Positions 25,387-26,089 of a stretch of DNA of 64,000 nucleotides are shown here, one piece after another. Location: NCBI RefSeq assembly GCF_020696975.1, contig NZ_JAJGBK010000019.1, positions 1 through 64,000 of the forward strand, in the 5' to 3' direction. The notes beneath the pieces were generated by a model. It was not told the origin of the DNA. It worked only from the letters and a program-made list of their open reading frames with translations, and searched no databases. The translations under genes and the position numbers were made by a program. Source of the stretch: Methanoculleus sp. GTDB lineage: Archaea; Halobacteriota; Methanomicrobia; Methanomicrobiales; Methanoculleaceae. How positions within the stretch are numbered: the first letter of the stretch is position 1; each line of letters opens with the position of its first letter.

Positions 25387-25812
25387 TTGGGCACTGAACC
25401 ACGGCAGAAGGCTATCAGGCAGCCTCGTCATCAAGCATCTGCCTGACTGCAACCTCTAGTTCCGGGATCTTGTTTCTAATGATGCCTCAGATCGGAGATC
25501 TGAGGCAGTTGCACTGAAAGTGCAACTCATCCCACACGATCTCGTTATGGATCCCGAAGTATGCGTGAATGAGGATATCCCGCATTCCTGCAATCTTTCT
25601 CCAGGAAATATCGGCATGTTTGCATTTCAGCGGTCGGGGATGAGTTTCACGGCCTCGCCGATGATCATGAGGTTCCGGATTATTCCGTCCTGCACCAGTT
25701 CGTTTGCCAGGAACTCCTCGTATTCCATTCCCCGGGTATACCGTTCAATTCTCCCGATGGCCTCAAGGATGTCGCGGAGATAGAGGTCATACTCCCGGGA
25801 CATATCGAACAC
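25387..25812 (-). pseudogene. hepT: hepT-like HEPN gene, broken by a frameshift and a 45-bp hairpin insertion
   Basis: The first 61 codons (MFDMSREYDLYLRDILEAIG to IIGEAVKLIPDR) are a normal HepT N terminus ending in a stop near 25627. A one-base shift restores the rest: CKHADISWRKIAGMRD, the catalytic region RDILIHAYFGIHNEIVWD and, after an interruption, RNKIPELEVAVRQMLDDEAA then stop. The interruption is 45 bases (25483-25527) made of two perfect hairpins and brings in a TGA. Removing those 45 bases joins VWD to VIRNKIPELE exactly as in intact HepT. The R-X4-H-X-Y motif itself survives (RDILIHAY) but cannot be translated as one protein. Confidence 0.85.
25483..25527. repeat. 45-bp double-hairpin insertion in hepT
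   Basis: Two adjacent perfect hairpins: arms GCCTCAGATC and GATCTGAGGC with loop GGA (25484-25506), then arms AGTTGCACT and AGTGCAACT with loop GAA (25507-25527). The unit plus one base is exactly the insertion that interrupts the HepT reading frame. Both have 3-nt loops, like hairpins at 23883 and 27302-27419. Confidence 0.75.
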
Positions 25813-26089
25813 TCCTGAGGATATGCGGTGCGAGAGTCGGTTTTATGGCATCGCGGTCGACGAGATCGACTTTCCTTCCGAAGAGATCTTCGAGGAAGAA
25901 CTTGAGGTCCATGTACGCGTCAAAAGAGCGCCCTCCTTCTTCAAACTCGATGAGGATATCGATATCGCTCTCATCGCTCTCTTCGCCCCGGGCAAACGAT
26001 CCGAAGACTCCGATCCGCCGGACACCCAGCCTCCTGATCCGTTCGCGGTGTTCCGCCAACGCACCGAGGATGCCATCAGCCGTAAGCAT
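25787..26089 (-). CDS. mntA: MntA-like nucleotidyltransferase (second pair)
   Basis: This 100-residue nucleotidyltransferase has GVFGSFARGEESDESDIDILIEF near residue 28 and a C-terminal KFFLEDLFGRKVDLVDRDAI segment typical of the family. It overlaps the start of the broken hepT at 25812 by 26 bases, as in a normal pair. The antitoxin gene looks intact while its partner is damaged, the order of loss expected for a toxin-antitoxin system under decay. Confidence 0.88.
   Translation of the reverse strand: MLTADGILGALAEHRERIRRLGVRRIGVFGSFARGEESDESDIDILIEFEEGGRSFDAYMDLKFFLEDLFGRKVDLVDRDAIKPTLAPHILRSVRYVPGV

What the first reader, a model, noticed from the sequence alone, without database searches (positions are those of the whole stretch)
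25483..25527. Exact 45-bp double-hairpin insertion disrupting a hepT toxin gene
Removing positions 25483-25527 restores VWD-VIRNKIPELE of HepT perfectly. The 45 bases consist of two perfect hairpins (10- and 9-bp stems, loops GGA and GAA) plus one base and bring in a stop codon. The clean edges indicate a recent insertion by a short hairpin element or by a templated event; no transposase is coded inside.
Basis: seen in the sequence. Interest (0 to 1): 0.7.

Follow-up and report, generated by a model that had tools for sequence, protein, structure and literature searches.

The report
Archaeal double-hairpin element inside toxin gene
The 45-base insert in this methanogen's hepT gene is one copy of a previously undescribed family of tiny two-hairpin mobile sequences that sit, often in frame, inside protein-coding genes of archaea, including essential ones, and whose means of moving is unknown.

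Summary
The insertion is real. In 16 related hepT copies the site is empty, and the window has exactly 45 extra bases there, with no target duplication. Folding z is -8.3, with 0 of 200 shuffles as stable. The insert is not a singleton. A second copy lies elsewhere in this genome, and close copies occur in other Methanoculleus-type genomes and in Methanomicrobiaceae UBA207. Covariation-supported relatives occur across the phylum. Hairpin 1 has a GTTG...CAAC base. Hairpin 2 has an ATC-TYC-GAT apex and usually one T.G wobble. Consensus copies are open in all three sense frames. Copies lie in frame inside PurM, FdhD, Elp3, LeuRS, Trm1, a MoaD/SAMP1-like protein and the AtpB tail, and also in several toxin genes.

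In the window, a substitution inside the element both perfects stem 2 and creates the stop. hepT has an independent frameshift upstream. The same insertion occurs at the same base in two other species, so "recent" is not supported. Most carriers lack Y1/RAYT transposases and reverse transcriptases. The window genome and the near-complete 1.07-Mb carrier also lack TnpB. The behaviour resembles Rickettsia palindromic elements; the mobilising enzyme is unknown.

The parts
25483..25527 (-). 45-bp double-hairpin element (family copy), sense with respect to hepT; differs from the family consensus at one base
   Evidence: 16 empty orthologous or paralogous sites, same ends at unrelated loci, covariance-model match 78 bits
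25507..25527 (-). hairpin 1: AGTTGCACT-TTC-AGTGCAACT, 9-bp stem
25483..25507 (-). hairpin 2: TGCCTCAGATC-TCC-GATCTGAGGCA, 10-11-bp stem, perfect here; most family copies have a T.G wobble (C.A on the other strand) at the fourth pair
25487..25489 (-). in-frame stop codon (TGA) made by a substitution private to this copy; family consensus reads TGG
25415..25803 (-). hepT (HEPN ribonuclease toxin), pseudogene: element insertion, in-element stop, plus a one-base frame disruption near 25631-25640; intact copies exist in related genomes
   Evidence: alignment with 15 related copies; PF01934 hits
25787..26089 (-). mntA-type nucleotidyltransferase antitoxin gene upstream of hepT, open reading frame intact
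   Evidence: ORF list, PF01909
24095..24731 (-). second nucleotidyltransferase/HEPN-type gene pair next door; the same pair lies beside the element-bearing hepT in G002
   Evidence: ORF list, BLAST, ORF comparison

Best explanation
The 45 bp are one copy of a family of very small, non-autonomous mobile DNA elements made of two adjacent hairpins, found in archaea of the phylum Halobacteriota. Shown: copies with the same ends sit at unrelated sites, sites without them are intact, no target sequence is duplicated at the one site compared at DNA level (hepT), and the fold is kept by compensatory changes while the sequence drifts. Shown: lengths of 45, 51 and 54 bp, open in the relevant frame, let copies sit in frame in housekeeping genes. 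Inferred: each insertion adds a 15-18-residue stretch to the protein, tolerated at surface loops or ends. Inferred: the folded single strand is what an enzyme acting in trans recognises, as for REP or IS200/IS605 ends, but that enzyme is not Y1, RT or TnpB in most hosts and remains unidentified. In the window, the element entered hepT in frame in an ancestor (or the same hot spot was hit more than once), and the toxin gene then decayed; one substitution inside the element added the stop and perfected the stem.
For: Second copy in own genome at C29:59685, 96% over 53 bp. Copies in G002, G015, G018, G019, G027 and UBA207 with identical ends and different flanks. Sixteen hepT copies without the element. 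Further genic sites: a second hepT (G018), a PIN/DUF3368-like gene (G015), a RelE-like gene (G083). In-frame copies: PurM (the 16 residues unaligned to solved PurM are the element; TIGR00878 325 bits), FdhD, a MoaD/SAMP1-like protein and the AtpB C-terminus, Elp3, LeuRS, Trm1. Covariation over 20 sequences: 29 double-change cells against 5.3 in shuffles, score 0.285 against 0.036-0.068 when partners are slid. Hairpin-2 pattern: 14 hits in 232 genomes, all but one in double hairpins; the reversed-pattern control shows 0 in every genome row listed.
Against: Movement was not observed; mobility is inferred from presence and absence. No mobilising enzyme was found. The covariation alignment was fitted to the model's structure. 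Empty sites at DNA level were compared only for hepT; for the housekeeping genes the insertion is inferred from protein alignment. Several carriers are metagenome-assembled genomes.
Confidence: 0.82

Rival explanations
1. REP/REPIN-like or IS200/IS605-derived element mobilised in trans by a Y1 (HUH) transposase or RAYT.
For: Small imperfect hairpins, strand polarity (T.G wobble on one strand), insertion without target duplication at hepT. G083 C32 and C17 carry pairs of inverted hairpins of one type, REPIN-like.
Against: Y1_Tnp is absent from G000, G002, G015, G019, G027, G083, G097-G099, G139, G140, G236 (one contig, 97% complete, several copies), G254, G293 and G303. No conserved GTAG or CGTC tag or target tetranucleotide is seen at the element edges. 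Copy number is mostly 1-8 in Methanomicrobiales.
Confidence: 0.2
2. One-off templated or snap-back mutation inside hepT.
For: Perfect palindromes are a typical product of such events.
Against: The same sequence with the same ends at many unrelated loci and in other genera.
Confidence: 0.01
3. Structured functional RNA or regulatory site (terminator, operator, 5'-UTR element) rather than a mobile element.
For: Strong fold with compensatory changes. One site lies about 25 bp upstream of a gene start and is shared by four genomes. Methanosarcina copies are intergenic and lie in larger multi-hairpin repeats.
Against: Copies lie inside coding frames of unrelated genes and are absent from their relatives. 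Within Methanoculleus, changes usually break pairs rather than compensate. No Rfam match.
Confidence: 0.08
4. An mRNA intron-like element that is spliced out.
For: Hairpins in mRNA; archaea splice some mRNAs at bulge-helix-bulge motifs (general knowledge).
Against: The long ORFs carrying the element in housekeeping genes stay in frame and open through it; splicing would not require that. Stops and frame losses appear in toxin genes.
Confidence: 0.04
5. Several independent insertions into one hot spot of hepT rather than one ancestral insertion.
For: On a tree of the gene pair without the insert, the G000 and G002 copies do not group; one-clade test p-AU 0.042.
Against: Weak p value, poorly resolved tree, gene conversion between paralogues possible; the insert sits at the same base in G000, G002 and G019, which one event explains more simply.
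Confidence: 0.3

Closest known systems
Rickettsia palindromic elements (RPE)
   Same: Small palindromic repeats inserted in frame in unrelated protein-coding genes, including essential ones (PMC10969869; PMC3733652); how they move is, as far as I know, unresolved.
   Different: RPEs are about 150 bp and bacterial; these are 45-54 bp, double-hairpin, in archaea. Sequence relatedness to RPEs was not tested.
REP / REPIN / BIME elements with RAYT transposases
   Same: Short imperfect hairpins, sometimes in inverted pairs; some REP dimers also lie in frame in bacterial genes (PMC3733652).
   Different: No GTAG or CGTC tag seen, low copy in Methanomicrobiales, no Y1/RAYT in most carriers.
Double-hairpin elements of fungal and algal mitochondrial DNA
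   Same: Two adjacent hairpins with small loops, thought to be mobile (recalled; the term is used in papers listed).
   Different: Organellar; those papers were not read and no sequence comparison was made.
Archaeal MITEs
   Same: Non-autonomous and small; described in Sulfolobus, Halobacterium and others (PMC10969869).
   Different: No single pair of terminal inverted repeats spanning the element and no target duplication at hepT.

Membership tests
Rickettsia palindromic elements | palindromic repeat that folds and is repeated at unrelated loci | tested here: met
Rickettsia palindromic elements | inserted in frame in coding genes that otherwise look intact | tested here: met
   PurM, FdhD, Elp3, LeuRS, Trm1, MoaD/SAMP1-like, AtpB tail
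Rickettsia palindromic elements | length of about 100-150 bp and occurrence in Rickettsia | tested here: not met
   45-54 bp, archaeal hosts
Rickettsia palindromic elements | sequence relationship to an RPE family | not tested
   no RPE sequences were compared
REP/RAYT (REPtron) | GTAG or CGTC tag at the hairpin base | tested here: not met
   flanks of about 40 copies inspected
REP/RAYT (REPtron) | RAYT/Y1 transposase in the genome | tested here: not met
   PF01797 absent from most carriers
IS200/IS605-derived element | insertion without target-site duplication | tested here: met
   hepT filled versus empty sites; other sites not compared at DNA level
IS200/IS605-derived element | fixed target tetra- or pentanucleotide at one end | tested here: not met
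   5' flanks differ among sites; only a weak CATC-like 3' trend
IS200/IS605-derived element | TnpA or TnpB in the host | tested here: not met
   own genome has neither; G236 has neither
MITE | one pair of terminal inverted repeats plus target duplication | tested here: not met
Known structured RNA family | match to an Rfam model | tested here: not met
   20 loci, no credible match

The most novel reading that the evidence does not exclude
A phylum-wide archaeal family of in-frame 'gene-stuffing' double-hairpin elements that spreads by a mechanism unrelated to Y1 transposases, TnpB or reverse transcriptases, for instance a host recombination or repair enzyme acting on folded single strands, adding 15-18 residues to essential proteins.
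Probability: 0.4. Interest if true: 0.8.

Novelty: new variant of a known kind. Interest (0 to 1): 0.62.

Why it matters
In-frame palindromic elements were known from Rickettsia and some other bacteria. In the literature held here I found none described in archaea. Tiny elements that enter essential genes without breaking them are a source of new protein segments, and how such elements move is an open question. The 1.07-Mb single-contig genome G236 (97% complete), with several copies and no detected Y1, RT or TnpB, is a simple place to look for the enzyme.

Tried and rejected
Y1_Tnp partner, reverse transcriptase partner and TnpB: absent from most or the key carriers. Rfam: nothing credible. 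Viral contigs: no exact match to a combined pattern. Plain 19-mer hits in Acidiferrales, Sulfopaludibacter and Cytophagaceae lack the double hairpin and are chance. Hits in 'Clostridiales' and 'Phycisphaerales' bins (L024, L027) are near-identical to the Methanoculleus UBA430 locus, so probably binning errors. Papers on Methanosarcina repeats: nothing relevant found. The tree test on one versus several hepT insertions was inconclusive.

Full report
Observation. Bases 25483-25527 form two adjacent perfect hairpins. The fold is far beyond chance (z = -8.3, 0 of 200 shuffles). Adjacent hairpin pairs of this quality are rare: 0-2 in shuffled versions of 208 kb, against 11 in the real sequence, most of them members of this family (that sequence was partly fetched because it holds copies). 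The host gene is hepT, downstream of an mntA-type gene (PF01934, PF01909).

Empty sites. A DNA search of 35 genomes of the genus brought in related hepT copies. In 15 aligned copies the sequence runs GTGTGGGA-CGTYRTY (with minor variants) without the insert, while the window has exactly 45 extra bases. A sixteenth empty copy (G015 C98) lies beside the same second gene pair as in the window. No target duplication is visible. G002 C1 and G019 C36 carry the element at the same base of hepT, next to large deletions or replacements of the upstream part of the gene. The insertion is therefore shared among species, not recent. Whether it happened once or more than once is open: the filled copies do not group on a gene tree, but the test is weak (p-AU 0.042).

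A repeat family. The window's genome holds one more copy (C29:59685-59737), about 25 bp upstream of a gene start. Other genomes of the genus and UBA207 carry copies with the same ends in different flanks. The consensus on the hepT-sense strand is AGTTGCACTTTCAGTGCAACT-GCCTCAGATCTYCGATCTGGGGCA. The shared middle base can pair with either the first or the last base, so the 45 bp are exactly two hairpins sharing one base. The window copy has one private substitution, which turns the usual T.G wobble into a Watson-Crick pair and TGG into TGA.

Structure conservation. Within the genus, changes mostly break pairs, as expected for decaying copies. A covariance-model search of 232 genomes of the order found more distant members, with up to eight matches in one UBA207-like genome. 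Over 20 members the two stems show strong compensatory change (29 double-change cells, none of 500 shuffles as high; covariation 0.285 against 0.036-0.068 when slid). The alignment was made with the model, so this leans towards the structure, but changes such as CAGATC/GATCTG to CACATC/GATGTG or CATATC/GATATG are plain in the sequences. Hairpin 2 almost never occurs without hairpin 1.

Wider range. A phylum search (393 genomes) added a 54-bp form, GTTGAAATYCC-NNN-GGRATTACAAC-TC-YCNCAGATCTTCGATCTGNGRCAT, in several small-genome lineages (G236, G254, G277, G293, G303), and a similar module inside larger multi-hairpin intergenic repeats of Methanosarcina-like genomes (G536 has a length, 5,751,492 bp, that I recall as that of M. 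acetivorans C2A). Homology of the Methanosarcina module is likely but less certain.

In-frame insertion. In UBA207, PurM reads ...EVLRVA-DSCTFSATASDLRSGA-AECTIHG..., and the 16 residues unaligned to solved PurM are the element (TIGR00878 325 bits). The same holds, with looser gap placement, for Elp3, LeuRS and Trm1. FdhD and a MoaD/SAMP1-like protein match their families from end to end or nearly so with the element in the middle, and AtpB of G099 (with G097 and G098 alike at DNA level) ends in an element-coded tail. Coding copies are multiples of three (45, 51, 54 bp); non-coding copies vary in length. Toxin genes are hit repeatedly: two hepT genes, a RelE-like gene and two PIN-like genes (the RelE and PIN assignments rest on inspection, since Pfam gave no such hit to the fragments). 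I read this as tolerance rather than targeting: insertions in toxin genes survive even when they break the gene.

Mechanism. The evidence fits precise insertion of a preformed two-hairpin unit without target duplication. Conserved hairpin structure with a strand-specific wobble points to recognition of a folded single strand (inferred). Y1 transposases, reverse transcriptases and TnpB are all absent from the window's genome, and all three are absent from G236, a 97% complete single-contig genome with several copies. The mobilising enzyme is therefore unknown; it may have been lost, may belong to another family, or may be a host recombination or repair enzyme.

Comparison. By behaviour the closest known kind is the Rickettsia palindromic element; some bacterial REP dimers are also found in frame in genes (PMC10969869, PMC3733652). 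Length, host and architecture differ, and no sequence comparison was made, so this is filed as working like an RPE, not as a member. REP/RAYT and IS200/IS605 membership fails on the tag or target and on the enzyme. No paper describing such elements in archaea was found in the library searched, which does not exclude subscription literature.

Noticed in passing
window 25631-25640: hepT has a one-base frame disruption upstream of the element that none of the 15 aligned related copies shares there; it may be genuine decay or an assembly error.
   Followed up: partly
L006 (G002 C1) and L008 (G019 C36) beside the element: In both genomes hepT sequence upstream is deleted or replaced up to about 10 bp before the element, nearly the same junction; in G019 the new sequence resembles an inverted hepT start.
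   Followed up: partly
L123 9255-9304 (G018 C11): A diverged two-hairpin sequence, GTGCATCCG-TCAC-CGGATGCAC followed by GCCTCACGCC-GGA-GGTGTGGGGC, keeps the T.G wobble position; possibly another subfamily.
   Followed up: no
L127 7713-7762, L128 9040-9091 (G083): Further double hairpins of other sequence in UBA207-like G083, some with both hairpins of one type in inverted order (REPIN-like).
   Followed up: partly
Methanosarcina-like loci L207-L220, L150-L162, L181-L189: Intergenic composite repeat: GTCCTCTTGAGCG...AAAAGGAC hairpin, then the double hairpin, then CCCGAAGCGAAACTCGGG hairpin; multicopy, no Rfam match in the loci scanned.
   Followed up: partly
L024 (JAAYRX010000244.1), L027 (JAJVHS010000053.1): Contigs labelled Clostridiales and Phycisphaerales carry the Methanoculleus locus almost unchanged; likely contamination of those metagenome bins.
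   Followed up: no
L066 2003-2356 (G083 C9): Fragment resembling an IS256-type transposase about 500 bp from the RelE-like gene that carries the element; identified by eye only.
   Followed up: no
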